This document shows positions 1,278-60,746 of a stretch of DNA of 64,000 bases, piece after piece (the stretch's first letter is position 1; every line of letters starts with the position of its first letter). Both the position numbers and the translations under genes were made by a program. Origin of the DNA: Chondrosia reniformis (taxonomy: Eukaryota; Porifera; Demospongiae; Chondrillida; Chondrillidae). The stretch is from positions 3,348,001 through 3,412,000 of the forward strand of contig OX359197.1 in NCBI GenBank assembly GCA_947172415.1. The letters are read 5' to 3'. The notes beneath the pieces were generated by a model, which made no database searches, was not told where the DNA came from, and was given only the letters and a program-made list of their open reading frames with translations.

Positions 1278-1316
1278 CTAAAAATAGGCCTCTCAGGTAT
1301 CTTAAACCAAAAGTTA

Positions 1317-3189
1317 GTGTTAGAAACTGTCCCACCCTTTATACAAAACAAAGAGCCCCCATGTGTAGTATATAAGAATACCCAACCAATAGGACCTCAA
1401 ATCTTTAACTTTTCACAAGCCTCTAAGTCAGATGTCTTTAGAAAACCAGAACCATGTGAGTGTCACAAGTCCCCCTTCATTTACAATCCCCTAGGCCATG
1501 TTTTAACAGGTGACCTACGTATTGTTAGTAACCCAAAACTTAGAAAACTTCTTAAGAAAGGACCAAAATTTAGAGAACCTAATAACTTTAATTGGGTAAC
1601 TGCTTTAAAAATGTGTAAGGAAGGTCTTAGAAAATATAAGATTACCTGGGCCCGTAGAGAAAATGTATCTATTTCTGTATTTAGTGAGTGGGAAAATACT
1701 GTACTTAAGAAAATTAATGATAGGATCTCTAAGCTGTCTAAATTGTATACCAAATCCTCCGTAGCCAAGAAGACCCTTACTTGCCCTAAAATTAAGAAAT
1801 TCTTAGCAGACCTACATGATAAGTATGTTATAGCCCCTGCCGATAAGGCCTCTAATAATATAATATTTATATGTAAGTCCTACTATAGACAAATTATTTA
1901 TGAAGAACTAGGCAGTACCTCCACTTATGCTAAATGTACAGTAGAACCACAACAGTTAATTAGGAAACACATAGATTTCTTAAAACTAGAGAACTTAGAA
2001 CCTAAACCAGACTGGTGTAACCTTCCCTCTTTTTACTGGATGCCTAAGCTATATAAGAACCCTTACAACTACAGATTCATAGCTGCTTCTCACAAATGTA
2101 CTACCAAACCCCTTTCTAGATTTCTAAATTCGGCACCCAGACTAATTCTCAAACATTTTAGAAAATACTGCCTTGGTATATATAGGAATACTGGTGTTAA
2201 TGCCTTTTGGATAGTAGAAAACTCACTAGAAGTCTTAGATAGTCTTAGGTCTATACCCGCTAGAAAAACCCAGTTAGCTAGTTTTGATTTTTCTACATTA
2301 TATACAGCGATCCCCCATAACCTACTTAAAGATAAGATTACTAACCTTATTCATAGTGCCTATACCTGTAGGAAGTAGTAATATATAGAAGTCTGTCAGG
2401 ATAAAGCCTTTTGGTCTAACAATGTCTCCAATAAAACAGTCACAGCTGTTCATTTAGTAGAGCTCTTTAATTACCTTATTGACAACATTTATGTATGTGT
2501 AGACGGTTCTGTATTTAAGCAATGTGTAGGTATCCCTATGGGTACTGACTGTGCCCCTGTAGTTGCTAATCTTTTTCTGTTTGCCTATGAGTATGAGTTT
2601 ATGAAAGGACTACTTAAGGATAACATCACCCTAGCTATTAAATTTTCCAATACTTATAGGTATATTGATGACCTTTTATGTATTAACAACAAGGATTTTG
2701 AACTATCAATTAGTGATATTTACCCCAAAGATTCTTAAAAAGACAAATACCAGCCCTAAAAAATCCCCCTTTTTAGACTTAGATATAACCATTACTAACA
2801 ATCAATTTATCACTAAAGTATATGATAAGCGAGAGGACTTTAACTTTGACATAGTAAACTTCCCCCATTTAGATAGTAATATTCCTAATACCCCAGCCTA
2901 TGGCGTCTTTATTTCACAACTAATTAGGTATTCCAGAATATGTAGTGACTTCTCCAGTTTTCAGGCTAAAAGTTTGCAGTTATGCAATAGGCTTATTAAG
3001 CAGGGTTACAAATACTTTAAGCTAAAATCAACCTTTAAAACCTTCCTATCCCGGCAGCCTCTAGTTAGAATCAAGTATAAGCAAAAAGTAGCTAGTATGC
3101 TTAAGGACTGTCTTGTGTTACCCCATATTGTGTTACCCCACCTCCAAAGAAATGTTACTACTAGAAGACCTAAGGGTAGACTTACGTAA
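1317..3189 (+). pseudogene. Penelope-like RT pseudogene (copy 1)
   Basis: The reading frame carries the CxC motif (CEC, in PEPCECHKSP) and PADKASNN of the RT fingers. RT motif A follows (DFSTLYTAIPH; the preceding residues are AS where copy 2 has TSL). It stops at a TAG (2,376-2,378) where copy 2 has a serine codon. Reading resumes through motif B (GTDCAPVVANLF) and motif C (YRYIDD). It then breaks again near 2,733, where five bases present in copy 2 are missing. The last part, with PFLDLDI and AYGVFISQLIRYSRIC, reads in the shifted frame to a stop at 3,189. Two small in-frame insertions near 3,035 and 3,120 also distinguish it. At RT fingers position PADK it keeps the Asp that copy 2 has changed to Asn. 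Confidence 0.9.
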
Positions 3190-3346
3190 TATGTCCTACT
3201 TTTGTCTATAGTTATGCTGAGTCTGTTTTACCTGTACAAGCAAGTTTACTAATAGATTTATAATTAATTCATAAAAGTTAATTGGACCTATATTCCTTTC
3301 ATAAAATTAAATTTCATCATGTGTCTTAGTTAACGCCTTATTTAAC

Positions 3347-3373
3347 TTTTGGCGCCAAAATAGTGTATATAAA
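3347..3373 (+). promoter_or_regulatory. GGCGCC palindrome and TATA box in the element's 3' region (copy 1)
   Basis: TTTTGGCGCCAAAA (3,347-3,360) is a perfect 14-base palindrome that contains an E2F-type half-site on each strand. Six bases later comes TATATAAA (3,366-3,373). The same pair is at 47,815-47,841 in copy 2, so it belongs to the element. In Penelope-like elements the pseudo-LTR carries the promoter, and a copy of it downstream of the RT can drive the next tandem unit. That role here is inferred from position only. Confidence 0.55.
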
Positions 3374-3444
3374 GCCCCTAGATTTAGCATAGAGAGCCAA
3401 GGATTCACAGAAGATCAAGATAAAGAAAAAGACAAAGACTCCCA

Positions 3445-3490
3445 GGATCACTGATGAAGGGTGGAATTCCCAGAAACGGCTGTCTGACCC
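3445..3490 (+). ncRNA. Hammerhead-ribozyme-like motif (copy 1)
   Basis: The core CTGATGA is at 3,451-3,457 and GAAA at 3,473-3,476. A putative cleavage-site triplet GTC is at 3,482-3,484. Helix I forms between GGATCA (3,445-3,450) and TGACCC (3,485-3,490) with one A.C mismatch. Helix II is GGG (3,459-3,461) with CCC (3,469-3,471), but its first position is an A.A opposition (3,458/3,472) instead of the usual G-C. Helix III is minimal: A3476-U3483 and C3477-G3482 around GGCU. Penelope-like elements are known to carry hammerheads, while Naiad-type ones are described as lacking canonical ones. This may be a weakened or noncanonical ribozyme. Confidence 0.5.
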
Positions 3491-3640
3491 AGTGGAGAAG
3501 AAGATGAAAGAAGGGAAAAGAAGGAAGAAAAGACTCCTGTATCTTCATCTAAAGCTCTCTTTAGGTTTAGTTCCCCTATAAGCTCTTTTTACAGAATAGG
3601 CATATAGCATGTAGGAAAATGGTATATTAGATTTTTCAAG

Positions 3641-16614: not shown

Positions 16615-16641
16615 CCCACAGGGTTTTCTATCAGAGAAATC

Positions 16642-17352
16642 TTAAGGTTTCTTTCGGAGACAGGCATCTTTTGCTTTGCCTAAAAGTTGCATCAGTTGAT
16701 CATTGCCACTTGTCCTGGGAATAGGATGATCATTTGTAGGAGTTTCAACAGGGGCTGCAGGTAGCTCACCATTTTGTTCAGTCCCAGCCTGAACTTGGTG
16801 AAGCTCCCCTTGCCCCTGGGCTCCCACACCTTCCTCCACAGTCTCAGTTAGGGTGGCTAAACCACAAGAGTCAGGTTCCACGAGATTTAGTCTCGAGAGA
16901 CCTTGACCTCTTCGGATTCGGCTAATTCTCGTAGTTAGCGCTACCTTTGTGGTTTTATGGTCTGGCATTTTAGCATTCCAAGCCTGGTACAACCGCTCGG
17001 TATACCCCTTTTCCATGGGCCTACTTTCTCGGTAGAGCTCCATGAGGATATTATCTCTCTGAAGGTTCCAGATCACCCCTTGGATCCTTCTCCTTCTAGA
17101 GGCACCTTGCGGTGCATCATTAACCAAAACTAAATCTCGGCTACCAGTTACTTGCAGTACTCCGTCTTCTACCAAGTTCCTTTTGGCTTGGAAGGCAAGG
17201 GTTCGACCGGTCTGAGGCAAATGTGGGTATTTTCTCAGCCATTCCCGCTCTAAACGCTTCTGATAGCCAACTCTTTTGGGTTCAGATCGCTCATAGCAAT
17301 CAATTAGTGCCCTAACCATTTCCTCGGTCCATAGGGCTGGTTGGCCCGTCAT
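16642..17352 (-). pseudogene. N-terminal Myb-like DNA-binding part of the non-LTR element
   Basis: This 236-residue open frame starts at an ATG at 17,352 and contains two tryptophan-anchored helical repeats. The first is near residues 8-64 (WTEEMVRALIDCYERS, then LEREWLRKYP and GRTLAFQAKRNL). The second is near 92-150 (NLQRDNILMELYRESR, then LYQAWNAKMP and ALTTRISRIRRG). The spacing resembles Myb/SANT-type modules that position R2-superfamily elements on target DNA. The C-terminal third is low-complexity. This is the only segment of the element without an internal break. Confidence 0.65.
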
Positions 17353-17470
17353 GGGGACCGAAGAAAGGCTATTACATTCAGGTACATCTACCTGTGAGGC
17401 ACCAGTGGAATCACCTATTCTGGTTGACCCACGGTTTTCTTCACCACTGGTGCACCTAGGCCACAGCCTA

Positions 17471-40428: not shown

Positions 40429-41714
40429 GAACTATACTACTAACTTAATACTTGCATGTCTATTACATACTATATTTTACATTACAACTTTTATTATACA
40501 TCAAGTCCCAGTCAAGTCCATCTTTTGAATGTAATGGCTTTAACCCTTTTCCACGGCTGGAAGAATTTCAAGCCACTATTGTGGCTTGAAATTCTTCCAG
40601 CCGTTACTGCCCGATAAGTTAAATAATGGTACAAGCTCTTCGAAATTTATATGTATTGATAGCGCTTACGTATAAGAATCTTCGTATAAAATATTATAGG
40701 TTTAAACCATAGTATAACTGTATTATAAAAGGAAGAAATTTGTATTATAGATATACAAATTACGCAAGCGGTAACGAAAAAATGCAAAGTTTTAAAATGG
40801 CCGTTCAAAAGGAGGACCTATTTCCTTGGCGCTTTTTGGTTTTACAGTATTTGTTGCTCTTAATAACTTGAGCGAAGGTTAGTTGGAGGATTTTATAATT
40901 ATTAAAGATGAAAATGGACCTTTAAAAGGTTAAACTAGGCAGTTGTTACTCTCGAGCCACAAAAGTGGTCATTGGGCGGTAAGGGGGGTAACGATTATGC
41001 TGTAACGCGGGCAGAAAAGGGTTACAAAAGCCTTTTTAATAAAAATAAAGGCCCTAAGCCTCATAAAAACAACATATATATACCAAGTATAAGTATAGAA
41101 GTATAATAAACAGATAAAATACCAGTGTAGTCCTTTGTCAGTAGTGGCTTTCAAAAAAGCCATTTGATGATATCCAAATAACACATGCTATAAATAACAC
41201 GGAAAGCACTTTTAAACAACAACATAAAAACTGGCCAGAATACCTTTAATAGAATACACACAAACAATATGAAGGAAAAGAATATACATTTCCTAAAGGC
41301 ATTTACTAGAAGAAATATAAACAAACGGGGTGACCTAAAACTATGAAGCCCTTAAAACAACAACGTGTCAAAGTAAGAGTGAATCCACCGATTGAAGGGC
41401 TAAATTCTTCACTAGTTGGTGAGGCTTCTTCTTCTTCTTCGCTGGCGAGGCTTCTTCTTCGCTGGCTGGCGAGTCTTCTTCACTGACTGGCGAGGCTTCG
41501 ATTGGTCACACACCACGTGTTCGAGATTGAATAACTGGTAACGCTTGGTTACGGTTTTGATTTCTTCTGGTGTGTAAACGATAATGCTAGATAATGCATT
41601 CACTCTTAACGATTGAAAACGAAAATTCTTTATTAATTAGTGCTTGGTACGTCTTGATCGCTATAAGGCAGCCTATCCCTAAGGAACAGCCATAAGGTAC
41701 CAGTGTAGCATGGA
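40429..41714. other. Right flank of the gene-relic island
   Basis: Non-satellite DNA with a perfect 24-bp hairpin (annotated separately) and a CTTCTT-rich imperfect repeat at about 41,415-41,500 (units GGCGAGGCTTCTTC and GGCGAGTCTTCTTC). A minus frame at 41,412-41,603 would encode 63 residues with a basic tail, but the tail is just the translated repeat. No supported gene is seen. Confidence 0.5.
40553..40604. repeat. Perfect 24-bp hairpin
   Basis: ACGGCTGGAAGAATTTCAAG and the following CCAC (40,553-40,576) are exactly complementary to 40,581-40,604 across a TATT loop. It lies about 125 bases downstream of the coiled-coil gene's stop. It could be a 3' processing structure, a transposon subterminal hairpin, or a small fold-back insertion. 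Confidence 0.9.
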
Positions 41715-44690
41715 GTACATACAACTAGTACATACAACTAATACGTACAACTTGGACATACAACTATTACACACAACTAGTACATAAAACTAGTACATAT
41801 AACTAGTACACCCAACTAGAAAATACAACTAGTAACTAGTACTTATAACTAGAGCCAACAACTAGTGCAGAAACTAGTGGTTCAACTATTACTTATTACT
41901 AGTACATACAACTAGGACTTACAACTACTAGATACAACTTGTACATACAACTAGAACAAATGACACGAATATACACATACAACAAGTACATACACCTAGT
42001 ACACACAACTTGTACAAACAACTAGTAAATGCAACTAGTACATAGAACTAGAATATACAAGTACTACAAACAACTATTACACACAACTTGTACATACAAC
42101 TAATACATAAAACTAGTACAAACAATTAGTACATATAACTAGTACAAACAGATATTACATGCAACTAATTCAAAAACTTGTTCATACAACTTGTACATAC
42201 GACTTTTATACACAACTAATACATATAACCTGTTTACACATATATAACTGGTACATATAAATAGTACACACAACGAGAACATACAACTAGTTCACACAAA
42301 TAGTATATACAACTAGAAACTAGTACATACAACTAGAAGAAACTACTGGTACATACAACTTGTACATACAATATTTACACGCAACTAGTACACACAACTA
42401 GCACAAAGAACTAGAACATACAGCTAGTGAGTACATCTAGTAACTAGTACATACATCTAGTACATACAACTAGTACATTGAACTAGTGAATACAACTAGT
42501 ACATAGAACTAGTGAATACAACTAGTACATAGAACTATTACATACAATTAGTTTAGAAAAGTAGTACATACAACTAGTACATGCAACAAGTATCTAGTAC
42601 ATATATACAACTAGTAGAAATAACTAGGACGTACAATTAGTTCCTACATCTAGTGAATATAACTAGTACTGGTACGTAAAACTAGTTCATACAACTAGAA
42701 TATATAACTAATGCATACAACTAGTACATGAAACTAGTACATACAACTAAGACATACAACTAGTTCATAAAACTAGTTCATTAAACTAGTACATACAAAT
42801 AGAATCTAGTAAATTCAACTAGTACCTACCTAGTACCTTGTATAACTAGTACTAGAACCTACAGCTAGTACATACAACTATTACATACATCTATTACATA
42901 AAACTACTATACGCAACTACTGCATATAACTAGTACATACACATATAACTAATTCATATAAAAAGTACATACACCTAGTCATACAACGAGTACATACAAC
43001 TAGCATCTGGTAAACACAACTAGGACCGACCTAGTACCTGGTATACCTTATTCTAGAACTTACAACTAGTACACACAACTAGTACATACAACTAGTACAC
43101 AAAACTATTAGGCACAACTTGTATATACAACTAGTACGTGCAACTAGTACATTCAAGTAGTACATATATACAACTAATAACCACAACTAGTACATACAAC
43201 AATTGCATACAAGTAGTACACAAAACCGATATATACAACTAGCACATACAACTAGTAAATACAAGTAGTACATACAACTTCTACACAGAACTAGTACATA
43301 AAACTAATACATATAACTAGTACATACATCTAGTAAATACTTCTAGTAACTAGTAAATACAACTAGTTCACACAACTAGTACATACAACAATTGCATACA
43401 AGTAGTACACAAAACTGGTATATACAACTAGGACATACAACTAGTATATACAACTAGAACATACAACAAGTACATACAAGTAGTACATACAACTTCTACA
43501 CACAAGTAGTACATAACACTAATACATATAACTAGTACATACATCTAGTAAATACTTCTAGTAACTAGTACATACAACTAGTTCACACAACTAGTACATA
43601 CAACTAGTTCACACAACTAGTACATACAACTAGTACATCCAATTGGTTCACACAACTAGTATCTGGTACATACAACTAGTTCCTACAAAGTACCCAGTAT
43701 AACTATTACTAAAACCTACAACTCGCACATACAACTAGTACACACAACTAGAATGCACAAATAGTACTTGCAACTAGTATCCACAACTAGTATATACATA
43801 CAACTTGTACTTATAACTAGAACATAATTCTATTACTTACAACTAGTACATACAACTACTACATACAACTAGCACAAACAAGTAGTACATACGACTGGTA
43901 CTTACAACTGCTACAAACAGCTAGTACATAAAATAATGCATACATCTATTACATGTTACATATTAATACTAAAGCATATACCTAGCACACATAACTGCCC
44001 CATATAATTAGTACAAAACAAATAAAACTAGAACATAAAATGGTATATAAAACTAGTACATACAACTACTACATACAACTAGTACATACGACTAGTACAT
44101 AATCTACTAGAAACAACTAGTACATATAACCAGTACGTACAACTATTCCAAAAAACAAGTACAAACAACTAGTCCTTTCAACTAGTATATACAATTTGTA
44201 TATACACACAACTAGTAAATATGACTAGAACATATACAAAACAAGCACATACACCTAGTGCATGCAATTTTTACATACAACTAGTACATACAACTAGTAC
44301 ATACACATATAGCTAGTACATACAAATAGTACACACAACTATAACATACAAGTAGTACATACAACTAGTACACTCAACTCGTACATACGACTAGGACATG
44401 CAACTAATATCTTCTGCCTACAAGTAAAACCTACCTAGTTCCTTTTATAACTAGTACTAGTACTTACAACTAATACATACAACTAGTACATATAACTTGT
44501 ACATACACACATAACTAGTACATATAAATAGTTTATACACCTAGTACACACAACTAGTACATTCTAGTAGTACACAAAACTGGTACATACAATATTACAT
44601 ACAACATGTACATACACCTAGTAGACAAACTACTACAGATAATTAGTACATACAACTACTACATACAACTAGTACGAACAAGTAGTAAAT
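41715..44690. repeat. 13-bp satellite block 8
   Basis: Satellite units between the gene-relic island and the second Penelope-like element. Two near copies of an approximately 200-bp segment lie around 43,200-43,340 and 43,385-43,570 (CAATTGCATACAAGTAG through ACATCTAGTAAATACTTCTAG). A segment near 43,000-43,130 recurs near 48,660-48,830 on the other side of the Penelope-like element. No gene is seen. Confidence 0.93.
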
Positions 44691-44760
44691 AGCCCCGGCT
44701 ACATGTTATAGGTTTAGTCTTTGTGGACTAGCTTGTCTAGTCCTTGACCCATTTCCAATC

Positions 44761-45728
44761 ATGACAAGTACAAAGTATAGAGATAGGATACTGGCTGGGA
44801 GGTCGCCCGGGTTAACAAGCTCCCCGTCATTAGGTAAAGGTAGGGTGCCTGGTGATGAAAAGTTAGCTAACTCTCCCCCATCTGTAGGTAGAGGGGTGCC
44901 TACTGGTGGGCAAGCTAGCCCCTCACTAGTTAAGAAGTGTAGCAATAAGCGGTGTAAAACATGTCCCTCTTTAGTTACTGGCCTACTTTTAAGAGTTCAG
45001 TTACTGGCAGGACCTATCAAGTCCGTAGCCCTTGTGGTCCCCTAGGATGCCAGAGTAGGAATGTTGTGTATCTTATTACTTGTAAACAATGTGATGTACA
45101 GTATGTAGGAGAAATCTCTCAGATGCTTAGGAGTAGAATGAACAACCATAGGACTAGTACCAAAGGTTGTAAGCCACTGTATCTTTACAATCACTTTAAT
45201 TCTGATAAGCATAGTTTTGATGATGCCTTGATTATGCCCATAGAACAGATACCTGAGACACCTAATTCTACTAGCCTCAGACTACTGAGAGAAGCGTTCT
45301 GGTACAAGGAACTCTGCTCTATTTACCCATATGGACTTAACGATAACATTAAAGGCGTTGGCAATATTTCAAAACTTAAAAAAGAAATCATCGTATGGAA
45401 CCTTTTTAATCGCTTATCTCATAAAAGACGGCATCGGCGCTCCAATCTAAAATCGACAGGCAGTAGTAATAACGCTACCTTCGACCCTGAATGGCTCAAA
45501 GAACGACTACCACTTTACAAGAACGTGGGCTTTCTAGCCAAACTTAAACGCGATACTTTTGCATTACAAGATCGACACCTTCATCATTTGTTAAACTCGG
45601 TACAATGTCTCATCGATACCCCAGAAACACCTTTTCCACTTAGACTTATGCTAATGATTAAAGACGTTAATAAAGCTCGCGCTTCAGCCAGCCTTCCCAA
45701 ACACCCAACGAAAACGACAAGTCCATAA
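44761..45728 (+). pseudogene. GIY-YIG endonuclease part of the Naiad-type element
   Basis: The N-terminal stretch reads in one frame from ATG 44,761 to about 44,985 and includes KKCSNKRCKTCPSL. The endonuclease continues in a second frame from about 44,961 to 45,728, so one indel separates them. In the second frame (255 residues) I see VVYLITCKQC with C41 and C44, YVG at 48-50, R57, H78 and H84 (NHFNSDKH) and E111 in REAFWYKEL. These are the GIY-YIG core and the CCHH zinc residues of Penelope-like endonucleases. The enzyme would nick DNA to prime reverse transcription. Its TAA lies in the same frame as the RT 15 bases later. Confidence 0.85.
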
Positions 45729-45743
45729 GGGTTTCTTAAAATC

Positions 45744-47657
45744 GTGTTTCATAATAAAGGTGTAGAAAAAATAGGCCTCTCAGGTATCTTAAACCAAAAG
45801 TTAGTGTTAGAAACTGTCCCACCCTTTATACAAAACAAAGAGCCCCCATGTGTAGTATATAAGTATACCCAACCAATAGGACCTCAAATCTTTAACTTTT
45901 CACAAGCCTCTAAGTCAGATGTCTTTAGAAAACCAGAACCATGTGAGTGTCACAAGTCCCCCTTCATTTACAAGCCCCTAGGCCATGTTTTAACAGGTGA
46001 TCTACGTATTGTTAGTAACCCAAAACTTAGAACACTTCTTAAGAAAGGACCAAAATTTAGAGAACCTAATAACTTTAATTGGGTAACTGCTTTAAAAATG
46101 TGTAAGGAAGGTCTTAGAAAATATAAGATTACCTGGGCCCGTAGAGAAAATGTATCTATTTCTGTATTTAGTGAGTGGGAAAATGCTGTACTTAAGAAAA
46201 TTAATGATAGGATCTCTAAGCTGTCTAAATCGTATACCAAATCCTCAGTAGCCAAGAAGACCCTTACTTGCCCTAAAATTAAGAAATTCTTAGCAGACCT
46301 ACATGATAAGTATGTTATAGCCCCTGCCAATAAGGCCTCTAATAATATAATATTTATATGTAAGTCCTACTATAGACAAATTAATAATGAAGAACTAGGC
46401 AGTACCTCCACTTATGCTAAATGTACAATAGAACCCCAACAGTTAATTAGGAAACACATAGATTTCTTAAAACTAGAGAACTTAGAACCTAAACCAGACT
46501 GGTGTAACCTTCCCTCTTTTTACTGGATGCCTAAGCTACATAAGAACCCTTACAACTACAGATTTATAGCTGCTTCTCACAAATGTACTACCAAACCCCT
46601 TTCTAGATTTCTAAATTCGGCACTCAGACTAATTCTCAAACATTTTAGAGAATACTGCCTAGGTATATATAGGAATACTGGTGTTAATGCCTTTTGGATA
46701 GTAGAAAACTCACTAGAAGTCTTAGATAGTCTTAGGTCTATACCCGCTAGAAAAACCCAGCTAACTAGTTTAGATTTTTCTACATTATATACAGCCATCC
46801 CCCATAACCTACTTAAAGATAGGATTACTAACCTTATTCATAGTGCCTATACCTGTAGGAAGTCCCAATATATAGAAGTCTGTCAGGATAAAGCCTTTTG
46901 GTCTAACAATGTCTCCAATAAAGCAGTCACAGCTGTTCATTTAGTAGAGCTCTTTAATTACCTTATTGACAACATTTATGTATGTGTAGACGGTTCTGTA
47001 TTTAAGCAATGTGTAGGTATCCCTATGGGTACTGACTGTGCCCCTGTAGTTGCTAATCTTTTTCTGTTTGCCTATGAGTGTGAGTTTATGAAAGGACTAC
47101 TTAAGGATAACATCACCCTAGCTATTAAATTTTCCAATACTTATAGGTATATTGATGACCTTTTATGTATTAACAACAAGGATTTTGAACTGTCAATTAG
47201 TGATATTTACCCCAAAGAACTTATTCTTAAAAAGACAAATACCAGCCCTAAAAAATCCCCCTTTTTAGACTTAGATATAACTATTACTAACAATCAATTT
47301 ATCACTAAAGTATATGATAAGCGAGAGGACTTTAACTTTGATATAGTAAATTTCCCCCATTTAGATAGTAATATTCCTACTACCCCAGCCTATGGTGTCT
47401 TTATTTCACAACTAATTAGGTATTCCAGAATATGTAGTGACTTCTCCAGTTTTCAGGCTAAATGTTTGCAGTTATGCAATAGGCTTATTAAGCAGGGTTA
47501 CAAATACTTTAAGTTAAAATCAACCTTTCTATCCCGGCAGCCTCTAGTTAGAATCAAGTATAAGCAAAAAGTAGCTAGTGTGCTTAAGGATTGTCTTGTG
47601 TCACCCCACTTCCAAAGATATGTTACTACTAGAAGACCTAAGGGTAGACTTACGTAA
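45744..47657 (+). CDS. CxC linker and reverse transcriptase of the Naiad-type element
   Basis: The 637-residue frame is uninterrupted and in phase with the endonuclease, separated by one TAA (45,726-45,728). The first codon listed is GTG, so it was probably the second half of one polyprotein. CxC is C67-E-C69, followed by GHVLTGDLRIV (80-90). RT motifs: VIAPANKASNN (191-201, usual PADK now PANK), FYWMPKLHKNPYNYRFIAA (259-277), motif A LDFSTLYTAIPH with D344, motif B GIPMGTDCAPVVANLF, motif C YIDD (469-472), PFLDLDI (506-512) and AYGVFISQLIRYSRIC (549-564). The catalytic Asp residues are kept. The D-to-N change at 196 and the missing endonuclease join argue it is no longer active. Confidence 0.88.
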   Translation: MFHNKGVEKIGLSGILNQKLVLETVPPFIQNKEPPCVVYKYTQPIGPQIFNFSQASKSDVFRKPEPCECHKSPFIYKPLGHVLTGDLRIVSNPKLRTLLKKGPKFREPNNFNWVTALKMCKEGLRKYKITWARRENVSISVFSEWENAVLKKINDRISKLSKSYTKSSVAKKTLTCPKIKKFLADLHDKYVIAPANKASNNIIFICKSYYRQINNEELGSTSTYAKCTIEPQQLIRKHIDFLKLENLEPKPDWCNLPSFYWMPKLHKNPYNYRFIAASHKCTTKPLSRFLNSALRLILKHFREYCLGIYRNTGVNAFWIVENSLEVLDSLRSIPARKTQLTSLDFSTLYTAIPHNLLKDRITNLIHSAYTCRKSQYIEVCQDKAFWSNNVSNKAVTAVHLVELFNYLIDNIYVCVDGSVFKQCVGIPMGTDCAPVVANLFLFAYECEFMKGLLKDNITLAIKFSNTYRYIDDLLCINNKDFELSISDIYPKELILKKTNTSPKKSPFLDLDITITNNQFITKVYDKREDFNFDIVNFPHLDSNIPTTPAYGVFISQLIRYSRICSDFSSFQAKCLQLCNRLIKQGYKYFKLKSTFLSRQPLVRIKYKQKVASVLKDCLVSPHFQRYVTTRRPKGRLT

Positions 47658-47814
47658 TATGTCCTACTTTTGTCTATAGTTATGCTGACTCTGTTTTACC
47701 TGTACAAGCAAGTTTATTAATAGATTTATAATTAATTCATAAAAGTTAATTGGACCTATATTCCTTTCATAAAATTAAATTTCATCATGTGTCTTAGTTA
47801 ACACCTTATTTAAA

Positions 47815-47841
47815 TTTTGGCGCCAAAATAGTGTATATAAA
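47815..47841 (+). promoter_or_regulatory. GGCGCC palindrome and TATA box in the element's 3' region (copy 2)
   Basis: TTTTGGCGCCAAAA (47,815-47,828) and TATATAAA (47,834-47,841) repeat the arrangement of copy 1 exactly, about 160 bases after the RT stop. Conservation while neighbouring bases differ (TTTAAATTTT here, TTTAACTTTT in copy 1) supports a function for the element, most likely as pseudo-LTR promoter. Confidence 0.55.
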
Positions 47842-47912
47842 GCCCCTAGATTTAGCATAGAGAGCCAAGGATTCACAGAAGATCAAGATAAAGAAAAAGA
47901 CAAAGACTCCCA

Positions 47913-47958
47913 TGATCACTGATGAAGGGTGGAATTCCCAGAAAGGGCTGTCTGACCC
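47913..47958 (+). ncRNA. Hammerhead-like motif, helix III disrupted (copy 2)
   Basis: CTGATGA (47,919-47,925), GAAA (47,941-47,944) and GTC (47,950-47,952) align with copy 1. Helix II GGG/CCC is kept. The base after GAAA is G (47,945) where copy 1 has C, so the second helix III pair is lost. The outermost helix I G is T (47,913). This copy should cleave less well than copy 1, if either cleaves at all. Confidence 0.45.
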
Positions 47959-48107
47959 AGTGGAGAAGAAGATGAAAGATGGGAAAAGAAGGAAGAAAAG
48001 ACTCCTGTATCTTCATCTAAAGCTCTCTTTAGGTTTAGTTCCCCTATAGGCTCTTTTTACAGAATAGGCATATAGCATGTAGGAAAATGGTATCTTAGAT
48101 TTTTCCT

Positions 48108-51100
48108 ACATGTAGTACGTACGACTAGAACATACAACTATTCCATAAAACTAGTGCATACAACTAGTCCTTACAACTAGTACATACAACTTGTACACTC
48201 AACTAGTACATACGACTAGAACATACACATATAACAAGTACATACATCTAGTTAATACAACTAGTACATACAGCTAGTACATATTACTAGTATATAAAAC
48301 AAGTACCTAAAACCAGTACATACAACTAGTACATACAATTTGTAGATACAAATTTAAAACAAAACTAGTAATAACCAGTTCATACACATATATAAAATAG
48401 TACATAAAACTAGAACATACAATTTGTAAATACACATAACTGGTACATACAAAGAGTACATATAACCAGTACATATAACTAGAATATACAACTAGTACAT
48501 ACAATTAGGTCATACATCTAGTACATCCAGCTAGAACACACAACTAGTACATACAACTAGTACATACAACTAGTACACACAACTAGTACATTTAACTAGT
48601 ACACACAACTAGTTCACACAACTAGTTCATAAAACTAGTACATACAATGATTACATACAACTAGCATCTGGTAAACACAACTAGGACCGACCTGGTACCT
48701 GGTATACCTTATTCTAGAACTTACAACTAGTACACACAACTAGTACATACAGCTAGTACATACAACTAGTACACAAAACTATTACACACAACTAGTATAT
48801 ACAACTAGTACGTGCAACTAGTACATTCAAGTGGTACATATATGCAACTAATAACCACAACTAGTACATGCAACAAGTGCATACAAGTAGTACACACAAC
48901 TGGTATAAACAACTAGGACATACAACTAATACATACAACTAGTACACACAACTAGTACACACAATTAGTACATTCTCGTGGATCACATATACAACTGATA
49001 AACATGACTAGTACATGCAGCTAGTACATACAACTAGTATATACATACACCTAGAACACTAAACTAGTACATACAATTAGTATAAACAACTAGTACATAC
49101 AACTAGTTCATACAACTAGTACATACAACTAGTACATAAAACTAGTATATACAACTAGTTCCTATACATACAGATAGTTGCTAGTACATACACCTATTAC
49201 ATACAACTAGTACATTCAACTAGTACATAAAACTAGAACATAAAATTAGTACATACAACTAATACATATAACTACATACGACTAGCACATACTACTACCC
49301 CATACATCTAAGACATTCAGATAGTTACTAGTACATACTACTAGTACATACTATTAGTACATACAACAAGTACATACAACAATTACATATAACTAGTACA
49401 TACGATTAGTTACTAGTACATTTATACAACTAGTACATACAACTAGGACATACAATAAGTACATATGTATACCACTAGTTACTAGTACATTCAACTATTA
49501 CATACAAATAGTCCATAAAACGGATAACTACACTAGAAAATATAATTAATACATACAAAAATTAAATACAACTAGTACATACAAGTAGTACATATAACTA
49601 CATACAATTAATTCAAGCAACTAGTACAAACAACTAATACATACAGATTGTTACTAGTACATACAACCAGAACATAAAAATTCTACATACAACGAGTACA
49701 TAAAACTAGTACATACACCTAGAACATATACCTAATACACACAACTACTTAATAGTACATACAACTAGTACAAACCATTAGTTCATGCAACTATTACATA
49801 CAACTAGTAAATACAAATAGTGCATCAACTACTTACTAGTACGTGCTACTAGTACATACAACTAGTACATACAATGAGTACATACAACTATTAAATACAT
49901 CTAGTTACTAGTACATGTAACTAGTACGTACAACTAGTACATTCAACTAGTACATAAAACTAGTACAAACGACTAGTTACTATTACATACAACTAGTACA
50001 TACAACTAGTAAATACAACTAGTTACTATTACATACAACTAGTACATACAACTAGTGCATACAACTAGTACATAAAACGGATAACTACAACTAGTAAATA
50101 TAACTAGTACATACAACTAGTACATATAATCAGTACATACAAATACATAGAAATAATACATAATACTAGAACATACTCCTAGTACAAACGACTAGTACAT
50201 AGAATAGGTAAATAAAACTAGTATATACAACTACTTCCTATACATACGTATAGTTACTAGTACATACAACTAGTACATACAACTTCTACCTACAACTCCT
50301 ACATAAAACTAGTACTTACAACTAGTACATATAACTAATACCTACAACTACTTAATGGTACATACAACTAGTTCATACAATTAGTTCATACAACTAGTAC
50401 ATACAACTAGTTATTACACCTAGTACATACAACTAGGACATACAACTAGTACATACAACCAGTGCGTACAACTGTATTGTTCATACAACTATAACTAAGA
50501 CTACAACATAGAACTAGTACATATAACCAGTTGATATTACTAGTACATATAACTAGTACAGATAACTAGCCCCTACAACTAATACATATAACCAGTACAT
50601 ACACATATAACTAGTACATATATGGTACATAAAACTAAAACATATTACTAGTACATACAACTAGTATATACAAACAACTAGTGTATACAACCTCTACATA
50701 CAACTAGTACATAAAGCTAGTACATAGAACTAGTACATACAATTATTACATACCACTAGTACATACAACTAGTACATACAGTTTGTACATACAACTAGTG
50801 CATGTAACTAGTATATACAACTAATCCATACAACTAATACATATAACCAGTACACACACTTATAACTAATACATATATATAGTACATAAAACTAGAACAT
50901 ACTACTAGTACATACAACAAGTATATACATACGACTGGTATATATAACAAGTGCATAAAACTATTACAAACAACTATTGCAAACAACTAGTACATAGGTA
51001 GTACATTCAATTAGAACATACAACTGGAACATACAACTGGCACAAAATTAGTACCTACAAATAGTTCATACAATTAGAACATGAAACTACTACTTACAAT

Positions 51101-54100
51101 TGAGTACATACAACTAGACCCTCCGACTAGTAAATATAACAAGAGCTAGTACATGCAATTATTACATAAAACTAGTAACTTCAACTAGTAAATATACCTA
51201 TTACATACAACAATTAAACACAACTACTACATAGAGGTAGTACATATAACTACATACAACTAGTTCAAAAAACTAGTAAATACCACTAGTGCCTACAGAT
51301 AATTACTAGTACATACAACTAGTACATACTACTAGCACATACAACTAGTTCATTCAGCTAGTACATACAACTAGTACATATAACTAGTACATCTGCTACT
51401 TACTAGTTCATACAACTAGTACATACAACTAGTAAATACAATAAGTACCTACAACTAGTTCATACAACTAGTACATACCAGCAGTACATACAACTATGTA
51501 GTACATATGACCAGTACATATAACCTGTACATATAATTAATTCATATAACTAGTCCATACAACTAGCACATATAACCAGTACATAAACTTATAACTAGCA
51601 CATATATATAGTACATAAAATTAGAACATACTACTAGTACATACAACTAGGACAAACAACTAGTACATCACTGGTACATAAAATTAGTACATACAACTAA
51701 TACATATAACTACATACGACTAGCATATACTACTACCCCATACATCTAAGACATTCAGATAGTTACTAGTACATACTACTAGTACATACTATTAGTACAT
51801 ACAACAAGTACATACAACAATTACATATAACTAGTACATACGATTAGTTACTAGTACATTTATACAACTAGTACATACAACTAGGACATACAATAAGTAC
51901 ATATGTATACCACTAGTTACTAGTACATTCAACTATTACATACAAATAGTCCATAAAACGGATAACTACACTAGAAAATATAATTAATACATACAAAAAT
52001 TAAATACAACTAGTACATACAAGTAGTACATATAACTACATACAATTAATTCAAGCAACTAGTACAAACAACTAATACATACAGATTGTTACTAGTACAT
52101 ACAACCAGAACATAAAAATTCTACATACAACGAGTACATAAAACTAGTACATACACCTAGAACATATACCTAATACACACAACTACTTAATAGTACATAC
52201 AACTAGTACAAACCATTAGTTCATGCAACTATTACATACAACTAGTAAATACAAATAGTGCATCAACTACTTACTAGTACGTGCTACTAGTACATACAAC
52301 TAGTACATACAATGAGTACATACAACTATTAAATACATCTAGTTACTAGTACATGTAACTAGTACGTACAACTAGTACATTCAACTAGTACATAAAACTA
52401 GTACAAACGACTAGTTACTATTACATACAACTAGTACATACAACTAGTAAATACAACTAGTTACTATTACATACAACTAGTACATACAACTAGTGCATAC
52501 AACTAGTACATAAAACGGATAACTACAACTAGTAAATATAACTAGTACATACAACTAGTACATATAATCAGTACATACAAATACATAGAAATAATACATA
52601 ATACTAGAACATACTCCTAGTACAAACGACTAGTACATAGAATAGGTAAATAAAACTAGTATATACAACTACTTCCTATACATACGTATAGTTACTAGTA
52701 CATACAACTAGTACATACAACTTCTACCTACAACTCCTACATAAAACTAGTACTTACAACTAGTACATATAACTAATACCTACAACTACTTAATGGTACA
52801 TACAACTAGTTCATACAATTAGTTCATACAACTAGTACATACAACTAGTTATTACACCTAGTACATACAACTAGGACATACAACTAGTACATACAACCAG
52901 TGCGTACAACTGTATTGTTCATACAACTATAACTAAGACTACAACATAGAACTAGTACATATAACCAGTTGATATTACTAGTACATATAACTAGTACAGA
53001 TAACTAGCCCCTACAACTAATACATATAACCAGTACATACACATATAACTAGTACATATATGGTACATAAAACTAAAACATATTACTAGTACATACAACT
53101 AGTATATACAAACAACTAGTGTATACAACCTCTACATACAACTAGTACATAAAGCTAGTACATAGAACTAGTACATACAATTATTACATACCACTAGTAC
53201 ATACAACTAGTACATACAGTTTGTACATACAACTAGTGCATGTAACTAGTATATACAACTAATCCATACAACTAATACATATAACCAGTACACACACTTA
53301 TAACTAATACATATATATAGTACATAAAACTAGAACATACTACTAGTACATACAACAAGTATATACATACGACTGGTATATATAACAAGTGCATAAAACT
53401 ATTACAAACAACTATTGCAAACAACTAGTACATAGGTAGTACATTCAATTAGAACATACAACTGGAACATACAACTGGCACAAAATTAGTACCTACAAAT
53501 AGTTCATACAATTAGAACATGAAACTACTACTTACAATTGAGTACATACAACTAGACCCTCCGACTAGTAAATATAACAAGAGCTAGTACATGCAATTAT
53601 TACATAAAACTAGTAACTTCAACTAGTAAATATACCTATTACATACAACAATTAAACACAACTACTACATAGAGGTAGTACATATAACTACATACAACTA
53701 GTTCAAAAAACTAGTAAATACCACTAGTGCCTACAGATAATTACTAGTACATACAACTAGTACATACTACTAGCACATACAACTAGTTCATTCAGCTAGT
53801 ACATACAACTAGTACATATAACTAGTACATCTGCTACTTACTAGTTCATACAACTAGTACATACAACTAGTAAATACAATAAGTACCTACAACTAGTTCA
53901 TACAACTAGTACATACCAGCAGTACATACAACTATGTAGTACATATGACCAGTACATATAACCTGTACATATAATTAATTCATATAACTAGTCCATACAA
54001 CTAGCACATATAACCAGTACATAAACTTATAACTAGCACATATATATAGTACATAAAATTAGAACATACTACTAGTACATACAACTAGGACAAACAACTA

Positions 54101-57100
54101 GTACATCACTGGTACATAAAATTAGTACATACAACTGGAACATATAACTAATATAAAACTAGTACATACAAATAGTACATACAATTAGAATATGCAAATA
54201 CTCCTTACAATTGAGTACATACAACTAATAAGGTGTACCTACAACTAGTATATACAACTAGTACATAAAACTAGTAACTACAACTAGTAAATATACCTAG
54301 TACAAACAAACATTACTCACAACTAGTGCATACAAGTAGTACATATAACTACATACAACTCTTTCAAACAACTAGTACATACAAATAGTGCCTTTAGATA
54401 GTTACTAGTACATACACCTAGTACATAGAACTAGTTACTAGTACATCAACTAGTACATAAGACTATTACATACAACTAGTAACTACAACTAGTAAATATA
54501 ACTAGTTAGGTACAACAATTACACCCAACTAGTACCTACAACTTAAACATATAACTACATACAACTAGTACATACAACTAGTAAACACAGATTGTTACTA
54601 GTACATACACCTAGTATATACAACTAGTACATACAACTTGTACATATAACTAGTACATAAAACTACTTACTAGTACATACAACAAGAACATACAATTTGT
54701 ACATACAACTAGCACGTTCAACTAGTACAAACAGCTAGTACATACAACTAGTAAATAAAAGTACATACAACTAGTACATGCAACTAGTCTAATAAAACTA
54801 GTACATATGCCCAGTATATATTACTAGTACCTATAACTAGTACATATAACTAGTACATACAAATAGTAAATATAACTAGTACATACACTTATAACTAGTA
54901 CATATGTATAGTACATAAAACTAGAACATACTACAAGTACATACAACTAGTATATACATACAACTGGTATATATAACAAGTACATAAAACTACAACAACT
55001 AGTACATAACTGGTACACACAAATTGTACATACAACTGGAACATACAACTGGCACAAAACTAGTACATACAATTAGAACGTGCAACTACTACTCACTATT
55101 GAGTACATACAACTAGAATCTCCAATTAGAAAATATAACAAGAGCTAGTACATGCAACTAGAACATACAACTAGTAACGTATACTTTCAACTAGTACACA
55201 CAACTATATAGTACATACAACTAGTACATACAACAATCACACACAACTAGTACACACAACTAGTACATATAACTACATACAACTAGTAAATACAGATTGT
55301 TTCTAGTACTTACACCTATTATATAGAAGTACTACATAAAATTTGTACATATAACTAGTACATATCACTACCTAAAAGTACACACAACTAGAACACACAA
55401 TTAGTACATACAACTAGTACACTCAACTAATACATACAGCTGGTAAATACAACTACTACATATAGCTAGTACATCAACTACTTGCTAGTACATACAACTA
55501 GTGCATACAAGTAGTAAATACAACAAGTACATACAACTAGAACATACAACTAGTACATATAACCAGTACATACACATATAACTAGTACATATATATAGTA
55601 CATAAAACTAAAACATATTACTATTACATAAAACTAGTCTACACATACAACTAATACATGCAACTTCTACATACAACTAGTATATAAAACAAGTATATAG
55701 AACTAGTCCATACAACTACTTAATAGTACATACAGATAGTACATATGACTAGTACATATAACTAGTACATACAAGAACTTACTAGAACATATATACAGCT
55801 AGAACATACAATTGGAACATTCATGGAGTATATGCAACTAGTACACACAAATAGTACATAAAACTCCTACATAAAACTAGTACATAAAGCTAGTACATAC
55901 ACCTAGTACATACAACTAGGTACTAGTATATACAACTAGAACATACAATTAGTTCATACAACTAGTACACACAACTAGTACATACAGCTAGTACATACAT
56001 CTATAAAGTACATACAACTAGTACTACAACTAGGACATAGAACTAGTACATATAACCAATACATATAACTAGTAAATAACACTAGTCCATACAACGAGTA
56101 CATATAATGAGTACATTCACTTATAGCTAGAACATATATATAGTATATAAACCTAGAACATACTACTCGTTCATAGAACCAGTATATACATAAAACAGGT
56201 ATATATATAACAAGAACATAAAACTATTACATACAACTGGTACTAACAACTAGTACATAACTACTACATACAATTAGTACATACAACTAGAACATGCATT
56301 AAGTATATACAAATAGTACATACAAATAGTACATATAACCATTACATACACTTATAACTAGTACTTATATATAGTACATAAATTACTAGTAAATATAACT
56401 AGTTTATACATAAAGCTAGTATATATAACAAGTACAAAAAACTATTACAAAAAACTATTGCAAACAACTAGTACATAACTAGTACATAGAATTAGTACAT
56501 ACAACTGGAATATACAACTGGTACAAAACTAGTACATACAAGTAGTACATACAATTAGAACATGCAACTACTACTTACAATTGAGTACATACAACTAGAA
56601 CCTCCAACTAGTAAATATAACAAGAGCTAGTACATTCAACTAGAACATACAACCAGTAACGTGTATCCTACAACTAGTATATACAACTATACATAAAACT
56701 AGTAACTACAACTAGTTAATATACCTATTACATACAAACATTACACATAACTACACAAGTAGTACATATAACTACATGCAACTAGTTCCAACAACTAATA
56801 AAAACAACTAATGCCTATAGATAGTTACTAGTACATACACCTTCTACATACAACTAGTGTATAAAACTAGTACATAGAACTTGTCTATACAACTAGTAAA
56901 TCCAACTAGCACATACAACTAGTACATATAGCTAGTACATACAATTAGTACATAAAACTAGTACATCGACTATTATATAGTTCATACAACTAGTACATAC
57001 AACTAGTAATACAGCAAGTTCATATAACTAGTCCATAAAACTAGTACATATCACCAGAACATACACCTATAATTAGCACATATACATGGTACATGAAACT

Positions 57101-60100
57101 AGAACATACTACTAGTACGTAGAACTAGTATATATAACAAATACATAAAACTATTACATACAACTAGTACAAATAAGTAGTACATAACTAATACATAAAA
57201 TTAGTACATACAACTGGACCATATAACTAACACAAAACTAGTACATACACATAGTACACACAACTAGTACATTAAACTAGTACATATAACTAGTGCATAA
57301 AACTAATACTTACAATTGGTACATATAACTAGTACATACGACTAGTACATACAATTAGTACATAAAACTAGTACATCCATCTAGTTACTAGTAAATGCAA
57401 CGAGTACATACAATTAGAACATAAAACTAGTAACTACAACTAGTAAATATTATTAGTACATACTTAATTATACACAACTAGTACATACAACTAGTACATA
57501 CAACTTCTACATACAACTAGTGCATAAAACTAGTATATAGAACTAGTATATACAGCTACTTACTAGTTCATACAACTAGTATATACAATTAATACATACA
57601 ACTAGTTCATACAACTTGTACATTCAGCTAGTACATACAACTAGTACATAGAACTTCTGCATAGAACAAGGGCATAAAACGTGTACATAAAACTAGTACA
57701 TACAACTACTTACTAGTACATACAACTAGTACATATAACTAGTAAATACAATTACTTACTAGAACATATATACAAGTAGTACATAAAACTAGTATATACA
57801 ACTAGTAGATTTAACAAGTGCAAACACATTTAACTAAACTAGTACATAAAACTAGATCATACTACTGGTACATACAACTAGTACATTAAACTAGTAAATA
57901 TAATTAGTACATAAAACTAGTACATAAAATTAGTACTACATACAACTACAAACTAGTACATACACCTAGACTACATACAACTAGAAATTAGTACATACCA
58001 CTAGTTCATACTACAAGTCCACACAACTAGTACATTAAACTAGTAAATATAATTAGTACATAAAACTAGTACATAAAATTAGTACATACAACTAGTACAT
58101 ACAACTAGTACATATAACCAGTACATACACATGTAACTAGTGCATAAAAACAGTACATATTACTAGTACATACAACTACTTACTAGTACAAAAAACTAGT
58201 ACATACAATTAGTACATATAACTAGTACATAGACCTAGTACATACAATTACTTACTAGAACATATATACAACTAGTACATACAAATTTACAAACAACAAG
58301 TACACACAACTAGTACATACAACTAGTACATACAACAAGTACTACAACTAGTGCATAGAACTAGTACATATAACCAGTACATAAAACTAGTATGTATAAC
58401 TAGTACATACAACTAGTGACTAGTTCACACAACTTGTACATACAACTAGTACATACAACTAGTAAATGCAGATTGTTAGTAGTACATAGACCTTGTAAAT
58501 TCAACAGGTACGTACAATTAGTACATATAACTAGTACCTAGAACTACTTAGTAGTACATACAACTGGTACATACAATTAGTACATACAACTAGTATATAC
58601 AACTAGTACCTACAGCTAGTACATACAACTAGTACATATAACTATTATATGAACTACTTACTAGTACATACAACGAGTAACTAAAACTACAACTAGTAAA
58701 TACAACTAGTACATAAAACTAGTACACAACTAGTACATACAACTAGTACACAATTAGTACATACAAATAGTATATAAATACAACTGGAACATACAACTAG
58801 CACAAAACTAGTACATACATTTTGTGCATACAATTAGAACAAGCAACTACTACCTACAATTAGGTAAATACAACTAGAACCTCCAACTAGTAAATATAAT
58901 GGGAGCTAGTACATACAACTAGAACATACAACTAGTAACGTGAACTTACAACTGGTGCAACTATATAGTAGATTTAAATAGTACATTCAATTAGTACATA
59001 CAACTAATACATATAACTAGTACATACAACTAGTACAAACAACCAGTACACACTACTAGTACATACAACTAGCTTTACAACTAGGGCATACAACCAGTAC
59101 ATATAACCAATATATATAACTAGTTCATATAACTAGTAAATGTAACTAGTAGATACACCTAGTTACTAGTACATACAACTAGTGTAAACAACTAGTACAA
59201 TAAACCAGTAACTACAAGTAGTAAATATAACTAGCCCGTACAACAATTACACCAAACTAGGACATACAACTAGTAAATAAAACTACATGCAACTTGTACA
59301 TACAACTTGTTCATAGAACTAGTAAATACAGATTGTTACTAGTACATAAACCTAGTACATCCAACTAGTGCATATAACAAGTACATCAAATACTTACTAG
59401 TACATTAAACTAATACATACAACTAGTAAATACAACTACTACTTACAACAATTATATACAACTGTAAAGTACATAAAACTAGTACTACAACTAGGACATA
59501 GAACCAGTGCATAAAACTAGTACATAGAACTAGTATATAGAACTAGTCCGTACAGGTAGTACATATAACCAGTACATACACATATAGCTAGTACATATTT
59601 ATAGTACATAAAATTAGAATATACTACTAGTACCTACACCTAGTAGAAACATACAATTAGTATATGTAACAAGTACATAAACTTTTACATACAACTAGGA
59701 CATACCACTAGTACATAACTAGTACATACAATTAGTACATACAATTGGAATATACAACTAGCACAAAACTAGTACATACATTTAGTACATACAATTAGAA
59801 CATGCAACTATCTAATTACAATTGAGTAAATACAACTAGAACCTCCAATTAGTAAATATAACAAGAGCTAGTACATACAATTAGAACATAAAACTAGAAC
59901 ATACAACTATTAACGTGTACTTGCAACTAGTACAAACAACTCTATAGTACATTCAACTAGTACATTCAATTAGTCCATACAACTAGTACATACGTCTAGT
60001 ATATACATATAATTAGTACCTACAGGTAGTACATAAAACTAGTACATACAACTAAAACTACAACTAGTACATTTAACCACTACATTCATATATAATCAGT

Positions 60101-60746
60101 TCATATAAATAGCAGACTACTAGTACTTACAACTAGGACATACAACTAGTACTACAACTAGGACATAAAACTAGTACATACAACTTGAATGAATAACCGG
60201 TACATACAAATATAACTAGTACATATAACAGGTACAAACACCTAGACTACACACATCTAGAAACTAGTACATACTACAAATACATACAACTAGTTCATAC
60301 AACTAGTACATACAACAAGTCCTTATATATACCACTAGTTGCTAGTACATATGACTAGTTACTTGTACATATATACAACTAGTACATACAACCAGTACAT
60401 ACAAGTACCTATATATACCACTAGATACTAGTACATACAACTAGTACATACAACTAGTACATTCAACTAGTACATACAACTAGTACATATAATTAGGACA
60501 TACAACTAGTACCTATAACTACATATGACTAGCACATACTACTACTACATACATCTAAGACAGACAGAGAGTTACAAGTACATACTACTAGTACATACAA
60601 CTAGTACATACAACTAGTAAAAACAACAATTACATATAACTAGTACATACGACTAGTTACTAGTACGTATATACAACTAGTACATACAACTAGTACATAC
60701 AACAAGTACATATAACCAGTACATATGACTAGTTACTAGTTCATAT
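48108..60746. repeat. 13-bp satellite block 9, longest array
   Basis: 12.6 kb of ACTAGTACATACA-type units without a recognised insertion. It contains the 2,438-bp tandem duplication annotated below and a recurring marker block (ACCTCCAACTAGTAAATATAAC or variants) near 51,120, 53,560, 55,120, 56,602, 58,870 and 59,845. No gene or RNA is seen. It ends at the hairpin of dispersed repeat copy B. Confidence 0.94.
49243..54118. repeat. 2,438-bp near-identical tandem duplication of satellite
   Basis: Unit 1 (about 49,243-51,680) and unit 2 (about 51,681-54,118) match line for line. ACTACATACGACTAGC, for example, starts at 49,271 and 51,709. Every irregular unit I compared recurs at the same offset, including GTGCGTACAACTGTATTGTT and ATATGGTACATAAAACTAAA. 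I noticed only one difference (CACATACT against CATATACT near 49,286 and 51,724). In a satellite whose other units are strongly diverged, this is either a very recent unequal exchange or an assembly duplication. Confidence 0.9.

What the first reader, a model, noticed from the sequence alone, without database searches (positions are those of the whole stretch)
44690..47657. Penelope-like element with permuted domains (endonuclease before RT) in one frame
The GIY-YIG endonuclease with CCHH residues ends at a TAA only 15 bases before, and in phase with, a 637-residue CxC-RT frame. This fits the Naiad clade of N-terminal endonuclease Penelope-like elements known from invertebrates. If the TAA is present in other copies, the element might use readthrough or two proteins; if not, it is simply a decayed copy.
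Basis: partly seen in the sequence, partly recalled or inferred. Interest (0 to 1): 0.7.

Follow-up and report, generated by a model that had tools for sequence, protein, structure and literature searches.

The report
Sponge retrotransposon with endonuclease first
The window holds a worn-out copy of a young-looking jumping gene of a sponge that carries its DNA cutter in front of its copying enzyme, an order known from a recently named branch of Penelope-like elements; the odd stop codon is just damage to this copy, but the family seems to carry a hammerhead-ribozyme-like RNA motif.

Summary
Observation confirmed: a GIY-YIG endonuclease frame ends in TAA (45726-45728) in phase with a CxC-RT frame. 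The host is almost certainly the sponge Chondrosia reniformis. The TAA is private: 1 of 40 fetched copies has it. Nine of 40 copies carry one uninterrupted 973-codon ORF, endonuclease-CxC-RT, 97.8-100% identical. So this is a decayed copy of a young family with one fused protein; no readthrough is needed. A contig apparently from another eukaryote encodes the same domain order colinearly, while a second PLE in the same sponge has the endonuclease at the C-terminus. By features this is an N-terminal-endonuclease, Naiad-type PLE; no RT tree with named references could be made. Twenty of 40 loci have an upstream pseudo-LTR; 3' ends share one site; 21 of 40 sit in a 13-bp satellite. Unexpectedly, the pseudo-LTR carries a type I hammerhead-like motif (descriptor met in 38 of 40 loci; 2 hits in 10 Mb random sequence), with an A.A mismatch, not recognised by Rfam and not favoured by folding. 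Motif and 3' end are far commoner (at least 2,006 and 2,502) than the RT (284), pointing to short, possibly non-autonomous, derivatives. Activity is untested.

The parts
44686..48105 (+). whole PLE insertion (window copy, decayed), between two 13-bp satellite arrays
   Evidence: blastn with a tandem copy; satellite arrays 41714-44691 and 48113-60733
44762..45045 (+). N-terminal part of the ORF (ATG, first cysteines), in another frame than the rest because one base is missing near 44982
44958..45728 (+). GIY-YIG endonuclease and linker frame ending at the private TAA
45063..45212 (+). GIY...C-x2-C...YVG and H-x5-H residues (CCHH)
   Evidence: the stretch aligns with an external element, where the second H is not kept
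45726..45728 (+). TAA, present in this copy only (1 of 40)
45729..47657 (+). CxC domain and reverse transcriptase frame
45939..45953 (+). CxC motif
46770..47162 (+). RT motifs A, B, C (YIDD), with a longer A-B spacer than the canonical PLE of the same genome
47907..47965 (+). hammerhead-like motif in the 3' UTR / pseudo-LTR; in this copy the inner pair of stem III is broken
48076..48105 (+). conserved 3' terminus (...GATTTTTC), the inferred reverse transcription start
1280..3638 (+). second, 5'-truncated copy of the same family, with a hammerhead-like motif at 3451-3484 that fits the pattern exactly

Best explanation
A decayed copy of a recently active N-terminal-endonuclease Penelope-like retrotransposon (Naiad-type) of the sponge Chondrosia reniformis. 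SHOWN: the family encodes one 973-residue protein, GIY-YIG endonuclease, then linker with CxC, then RT; the TAA is private damage; half of the fetched loci carry an upstream pseudo-LTR; 3' ends lie at one site, and in loci with a pseudo-LTR the upstream unit runs on past that site. INFERRED: tandem RNA is bound by the fused protein; the endonuclease nicks AT/AC-rich DNA, often a 13-bp satellite; reverse transcription starts internally at ...GATTTTTC of the RNA rather than at its 3' end, runs through the ORF and into the upstream unit, giving pseudo-LTRs and 5' truncation. INFERRED, about even odds: a type I hammerhead-like motif in the pseudo-LTR cleaves the tandem RNA, probably as a dimer, and short elements made of this motif plus the 3' end are copied in trans by the same protein.
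For: One 973-codon ORF open in 9 of 40 fetched copies, 97.8-100% identical in protein (the same nine are the full-length stop-free rows among the 50 matches). TAA in 1 of 40 copies. External contig L045 aligns colinearly over endonuclease, CxC and most of the RT: 30% identity over 794 columns, E 1e-98, and has direct repeats of about 900 bp on both sides of the ORF. In the same sponge a canonical PLE (L048) has its GIY-YIG after the RT, 22% RT identity by BLAST (26% in the MAFFT alignment) and a 56-residue A-B spacer against 74 here and 79-80 in three external relatives. 20 of 40 loci have a pseudo-LTR running past the 3'-end site; in 40 of 40 loci the 3' region fits GATTTTTC or a close variant (L032 is rearranged, so its place is uncertain). 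Hammerhead-like motif: descriptor met in 38 of 40 loci against 2 hits in 10 Mb of random sequence. Counts along the element with at most 3 mismatches: RT 284, stop codon 391, mid 3'UTR 483, 29-58 nt before the motif 1,105, 3' end 2,502; motif pattern, exact, 2,237, at least 2,006 of them not of the G-C type (231).
Against: Pfam matches of the window frames, and of GIY-YIG in P0001, are below the curated cut-offs; RVT_1 is not reported for P0001 at E 0.01. No RT tree with named Naiad, Chlamys or Penelope references. The hammerhead-like motif has an A.A mismatch at the base of stem II (no locus of 40 passes when that pair is required), is not found by Rfam even at E 10, and the best fold of the strand is a different one (-13.3 against -7.4 kcal/mol). 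The external element with the same architecture has no such motif. The 40 copies are the best-scoring of 740 candidates, so they over-represent young, full copies.
Confidence: 0.9

Rival explanations
1. The TAA is a functional stop: the element makes two proteins or uses readthrough.
For: The two frames are exactly in phase in the window copy.
Against: 39 of 40 copies have a sense codon there; nine copies are open throughout.
Confidence: 0.01
2. Two canonical (C-terminal endonuclease) PLE copies in tandem, so that the endonuclease of one stands before the RT of the next; no permutation.
For: PLEs do lie in tandem, and a canonical PLE exists in this genome.
Against: Nine copies have ATG-endonuclease-CxC-RT-stop in one ORF that ends without a second endonuclease; tandem units, where seen, are separated by a pseudo-LTR; another organism's element has the same fused order.
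Confidence: 0.02
3. The endonuclease is an unrelated insertion next to an RT fragment.
For: None beyond adjacency in the window.
Against: Same junction in all 40 copies aligned; colinear homology with L045 through both domains.
Confidence: 0.01
4. The hammerhead-like motif is a chance resemblance or a dead relic, and the excess of 3' ends is ordinary 5' truncation.
For: A.A mismatch, no Rfam hit, alternative fold more stable; counts also rise towards the 3' end upstream of the motif; the motif was noticed first and the descriptor written afterwards; most copies are near-identical, so their agreement is not independent.
Against: 2 chance hits in 10 Mb; core, GAAA, two-pair stem III with tetraloop, GUC and stem I kept in 38 of 40 loci; a hammerhead with a U.U mismatch at the same place self-cleaves (PMC7229834, section 15 read); counts rise about fourfold across some 100 nt, 483 to at least 2,006.
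Confidence: 0.45

Closest known systems
Naiad clade of N-terminal endonuclease PLEs (Craig et al. 2021, doi 10.1093/molbev/msab225; reference seen, content recalled, paper not held)
   Same: Endonuclease with CCHH residues before the RT, CxC linker, single ORF, pseudo-LTRs, insertion near simple repeats, invertebrate host.
   Different: A hammerhead-like motif in the pseudo-LTR, where the abstract as I recall it says that these elements lack canonical hammerheads; 21 of 40 fetched copies in one 13-bp satellite; membership not tested by a tree.
Chlamys PLEs (green algae and others; recalled; named as PLE/Chlamys in PMC12477816, passages seen)
   Same: Permuted order and CxC (both recalled).
   Different: Chlamys lacks the CCHH residues (recalled); they are present here.
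Canonical C-terminal endonuclease PLEs (Penelope/Poseidon; L048 in this genome)
   Same: GIY-YIG and RT in one ORF; for Poseidon of Anolis, tandem copies and internal start of reverse transcription (PMC11167929, main text read).
   Different: Endonuclease after the RT, shorter A-B spacer, 22% RT identity. Whether L048 has a CxC could not be seen: the 1,700 bases fetched may begin after it.
Metazoan retrozymes and PLE hammerheads (PMC7229834 section 15 read; PMC7761336 passages seen)
   Same: Type I layout, two-pair stem III with tetraloop, mismatch at the base of stem II, many short copies, pseudo-LTR position.
   Different: A.A instead of U.U; here in a permuted-domain PLE; no cleavage or circular RNA tested.

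Membership tests
Naiad-type N-terminal endonuclease PLE | GIY-YIG endonuclease N-terminal to the RT in one ORF | tested here: met
   9 of 40 copies with an open 973-codon ORF
Naiad-type N-terminal endonuclease PLE | CCHH residues in the endonuclease (separates Naiad from Chlamys; recalled) | tested here: met
   C108, C111, H145, H151 of P0001 by motif position; that these are the CCHH of the literature is recalled
Naiad-type N-terminal endonuclease PLE | CxC motif between endonuclease and RT | tested here: met
   PCECH at residue 394; aligned with PCSCA of L045
Naiad-type N-terminal endonuclease PLE | insertion in fingers domain between RT motifs A and B | tested here: inconclusive
   A-B spacer 74 residues, against 79-80 in three external relatives and 56 in canonical L048; no structure obtained
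Naiad-type N-terminal endonuclease PLE | RT grouping with Naiad in a tree | not testable with these tools
   no named references found; pairwise identities only
Naiad-type N-terminal endonuclease PLE | pseudo-LTRs and tandem or inverted partial copies | tested here: met
   20 of 40 loci with pseudo-LTR; complex inverted locus L032
Naiad-type N-terminal endonuclease PLE | absence of canonical hammerhead motifs (recalled) | tested here: inconclusive
   no Rfam hit, but a hammerhead-like motif in 38 of 40 loci
Canonical PLE (Penelope/Poseidon, Neptune, Nematis) | endonuclease C-terminal to the RT | tested here: not met
Type I hammerhead ribozyme | core CUGANGA, GAAA, three stems, NUH cleavage site | tested here: met
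   descriptor, with any base allowed at 10.1/11.1
Type I hammerhead ribozyme | paired 10.1-11.1 at the base of stem II | tested here: not met
   strict descriptor 0 of 40 loci
Type I hammerhead ribozyme | self-cleavage | not testable with these tools
   needs a transcript assay

The most novel reading that the evidence does not exclude
A permuted-domain (N-terminal endonuclease) PLE that does carry a working hammerhead ribozyme in its pseudo-LTR and mobilises in trans well over a thousand short, retrozyme-like elements made of that ribozyme and its own 3' end, in an early-branching animal.
Probability: 0.35. Interest if true: 0.62.

Novelty: new variant of a known kind. Interest (0 to 1): 0.42.

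Why it matters
The permuted PLE itself is a new member of a described kind, with intact, nearly identical copies in one sponge. If the hammerhead-like motif is active, ribozymes would not be confined to canonical PLEs and their telomeric relatives, and a pair of autonomous element and ribozyme-bearing short derivative would be at hand for the open question of what mobilises animal retrozymes.

Tried and rejected
Readthrough or two-protein use of the TAA: rejected. Tandem canonical copies and chance adjacency: rejected. Relatives in viral contigs: none confirmed by tblastn with P0001 (1 candidate) or with A1 (19 candidates). PDB: no match of the window RT up to E 1; the profile A2 gives 9 chains up to E 10, the best named only RNA-directed DNA polymerase (E 0.001), TERT at E 1.2 and 1.3, too weak to root a tree. 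Hammerhead in the external elements: none by Rfam at E 1 in L044-L047 or by the descriptor in L044-L048. The G-C type hammerheads (231) as part of this element: on the first 6.7 Mb of C1, 0 of 18 have an exact Naiad-type 3' end downstream, against 31 of the other 82, so they look like another family. Formal tree: not attempted, as five partial sequences without a root could not answer the question.
Full report
Host and observation. The window is G000:C9:3348001-3412000 of a 117,379,552-base genome in 15 contigs. Total size, longest contig seen (10.409 Mb), an 8.459 Mb contig and a 17,451-base contig with mitochondrial genes fit the published assembly of the sponge Chondrosia reniformis: 117.37 Mb, 14 chromosomes, longest 10.41 Mb, N50 8.46 Mb, mitochondrion 17.45 kb (PMC12181767, abstract and passages seen).

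The stop codon is private. A DNA search gave 42 matches, 40 of 740 candidates being scored; all 42 lie in the 40 loci I hold. In an alignment of the 40 copies the TAA occurs in the window copy alone; the other 39 have a sense codon. Nine of the 40 have an uninterrupted ATG-initiated ORF of 973 codons (in 24 of 40 the script found the start region at all; the other 16 are truncated or changed there), and these nine proteins are 97.8-100% identical to each other. The window copy also lacks one base near 44982, which puts the ATG (44762) and first cysteines in another frame, and has two in-frame deletions. It is a decayed copy of a family that moved recently.

Architecture. The 973-aa protein (P0001) has, in order, Cx4Cx2C from residue 60, GIY with C108 and C111, YVG at 115, H145 and H151, CxC at 395-397, KGPKFREP at 429, RT motifs at 584, 671, 753 and 797. 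A scan of bacterial genome contigs with a bait alignment found four loci (of 64 candidate stretches) that look like eukaryotic contaminants. One, L045, encodes a 1,019-aa frame that aligns with P0001 through endonuclease, linker, CxC and RT (residues 37-783; 30% identity, 47% positives, E 1e-98) and has direct repeats of about 900 bp on both sides; the second histidine is not kept there. The others show RT only: L046 (46% over 188 columns), L044 (35% over 493; there fused to a stretch that looks, by recall, like a ubiquitin hydrolase) and L047 (48% in its best segment). A canonical PLE of the same sponge, L048, has its GIY-YIG after the RT, 22% RT identity by BLAST, and 56 residues between motifs A and B against 74 in P0001 and 79-80 in L044, L045 and L046. 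The longer spacer is what one would expect from the insertion in fingers domain that, as I recall, marks N-terminal-endonuclease PLEs; no structure could be made.

Insertion structure and mechanism. Twenty of 40 loci have an upstream pseudo-LTR whose sequence runs on past the point where 3' ends stop; in 40 of 40 loci the script finds GATTTTTC or a close variant there (next two bases AT in 36, AC in 3, CT in 1), though L032 is rearranged and its place uncertain. Nine loci show, upstream of the pseudo-LTR, a partial ORF end of the preceding unit, and L032 is a complex tandem and inverted locus. This matches the internal initiation of reverse transcription shown in vitro for a canonical PLE of Anolis (PMC11167929, main text read); the step is inferred here. 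Twenty-one of 40 copies have the 13-bp satellite (ACTAGTACATACA) on both sides and 16 on neither; in L017, L032 and L040 the boundary found lies inside the element, so I leave these three unscored. The satellite is about 59% of the window; scaling a 39-mer (4 in the window, 656 in the genome) gives very roughly 5% of the genome. On C1 and C2, the chromosomes fully listed, and on C3 as far as the list goes, it keeps to one broad region, as a centromeric repeat might. Some flanks are shared between copies (L001 and L003 upstream, L003 and L006 downstream), so duplication of satellite blocks explains part of the excess.

The hammerhead-like motif. The 3' UTR, and hence the pseudo-LTR, holds CUGAUGA, a stem II of three G-C pairs with an A.A mismatch at its base, GAAA, a stem III of two pairs with a tetraloop, GUC, and a stem I with internal loops. 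A descriptor written after seeing it matches 38 of 40 loci; the two misses are the window copy (L001), where stem III is broken, and L029; on the opposite strand of 268,245 bases there is one hit, a real inverted copy; 10 Mb of first-order random sequence give 2 hits; with a paired base of stem II required, 0 of 40 loci match. Against it: Rfam reports no hammerhead at E 5 in four loci or E 10 in a 231-base stretch, and the minimum-energy fold is different (-13.3 against -7.4 kcal/mol). An old, diverged copy of the motif in L013 has a pairable A-U at that place but a changed core, which speaks neither way. For it: an axolotl hammerhead with a U.U mismatch at the base of helix II and a two-pair helix III with tetraloop cleaves 22% in an hour as a monomer and better as a dimer (PMC7229834, section 15).

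Copy numbers. Whole-genome counts on both strands, reversed-pattern control in brackets: RT word 284 [0], stop-codon word 391 [0], mid-3'UTR word 483 [0], word 29-58 nt before the motif 1,105 [0], 3'-end word 2,502 [0], all with up to 3 mismatches; motif pattern, exact, 2,237 [1]; a G-C variant, with slightly wider gap limits, 231 [0], so at least 2,006 are not of that type. The rise from 483 to at least 2,006 across some 100 nt is steeper than from 284 to 483 over about 670 nt. Among the first listed places (C1, up to 6.7 Mb), 31 of 47 exact 3' ends have the motif 60-260 nt upstream, 18 of the 31 at an offset of 153 or 157; none of 18 G-C type motifs has such an end. Several G-C motifs stand 359-362 nt apart in tandem, as retrozymes do. 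I read this as short elements made of motif and 3' end, either truncated copies or a non-autonomous family; the letters needed to decide were not available.

Literature. Papers with Penelope, hammerhead and sponge together: 5, none on this by title and start of abstract; Naiad, Penelope-like and GIY-YIG together: 0; other searches (listings seen, 47 and 100 only in part) showed no hammerhead in a permuted PLE by title. The paper that defines the clade is not in the library, so the statement that these elements lack canonical hammerheads is recalled. I claim no priority beyond these searches.

Verdict. The element is filed as Naiad-type by features, with the tree untested. The unexpected part is the hammerhead-like motif and its many short copies.

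Noticed in passing
window 4445-60733 (eight arrays by TRF) and G000 C1-C3: A 13-bp satellite (ACTAGTACATACA) fills about 59% of the window and, on C1, C2 and the listed part of C3, keeps to one broad region per chromosome: a candidate centromeric satellite.
   Followed up: partly
window 1280-3638 (+): A second, 5'-truncated copy of the same PLE with its RT frame broken and a hammerhead-like motif fitting the pattern exactly at 3451-3484.
   Followed up: partly
G000, e.g. C4:3837454-3838563 and C7:2773361-2774115: 231 hammerhead patterns with G-C at the base of stem II, some in tandem 359-362 nt apart: perhaps a separate retrozyme-like family.
   Followed up: partly
L048 (G000:C4:2632420-2634119): A canonical C-terminal-endonuclease PLE in the same genome; many GIY-YIG hits with the same profile range lie in inverted pairs.
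   Followed up: partly
L044 1-2637: In a contig filed under a gammaproteobacterium, a PLE-like RT is fused in one frame to what looks, by recall, like a ubiquitin-specific protease.
   Followed up: no
window 13705-17481 (-): Broken frames of another reverse transcriptase element (RVT_1 E 1.3e-5, below the cut-off), between satellite arrays.
   Followed up: no
L001, L003, L006 flanks: Copies on different chromosomes, or about 0.6 Mb apart on one, share flanking satellite junctions, pointing to duplication or exchange of satellite blocks that carry the PLE.
   Followed up: no
G000:C11:4459252-4460675: Exon-wise matches to the telomerase RNA-binding domain: probably the sponge's TERT gene, a possible root for an RT tree.
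   Followed up: no
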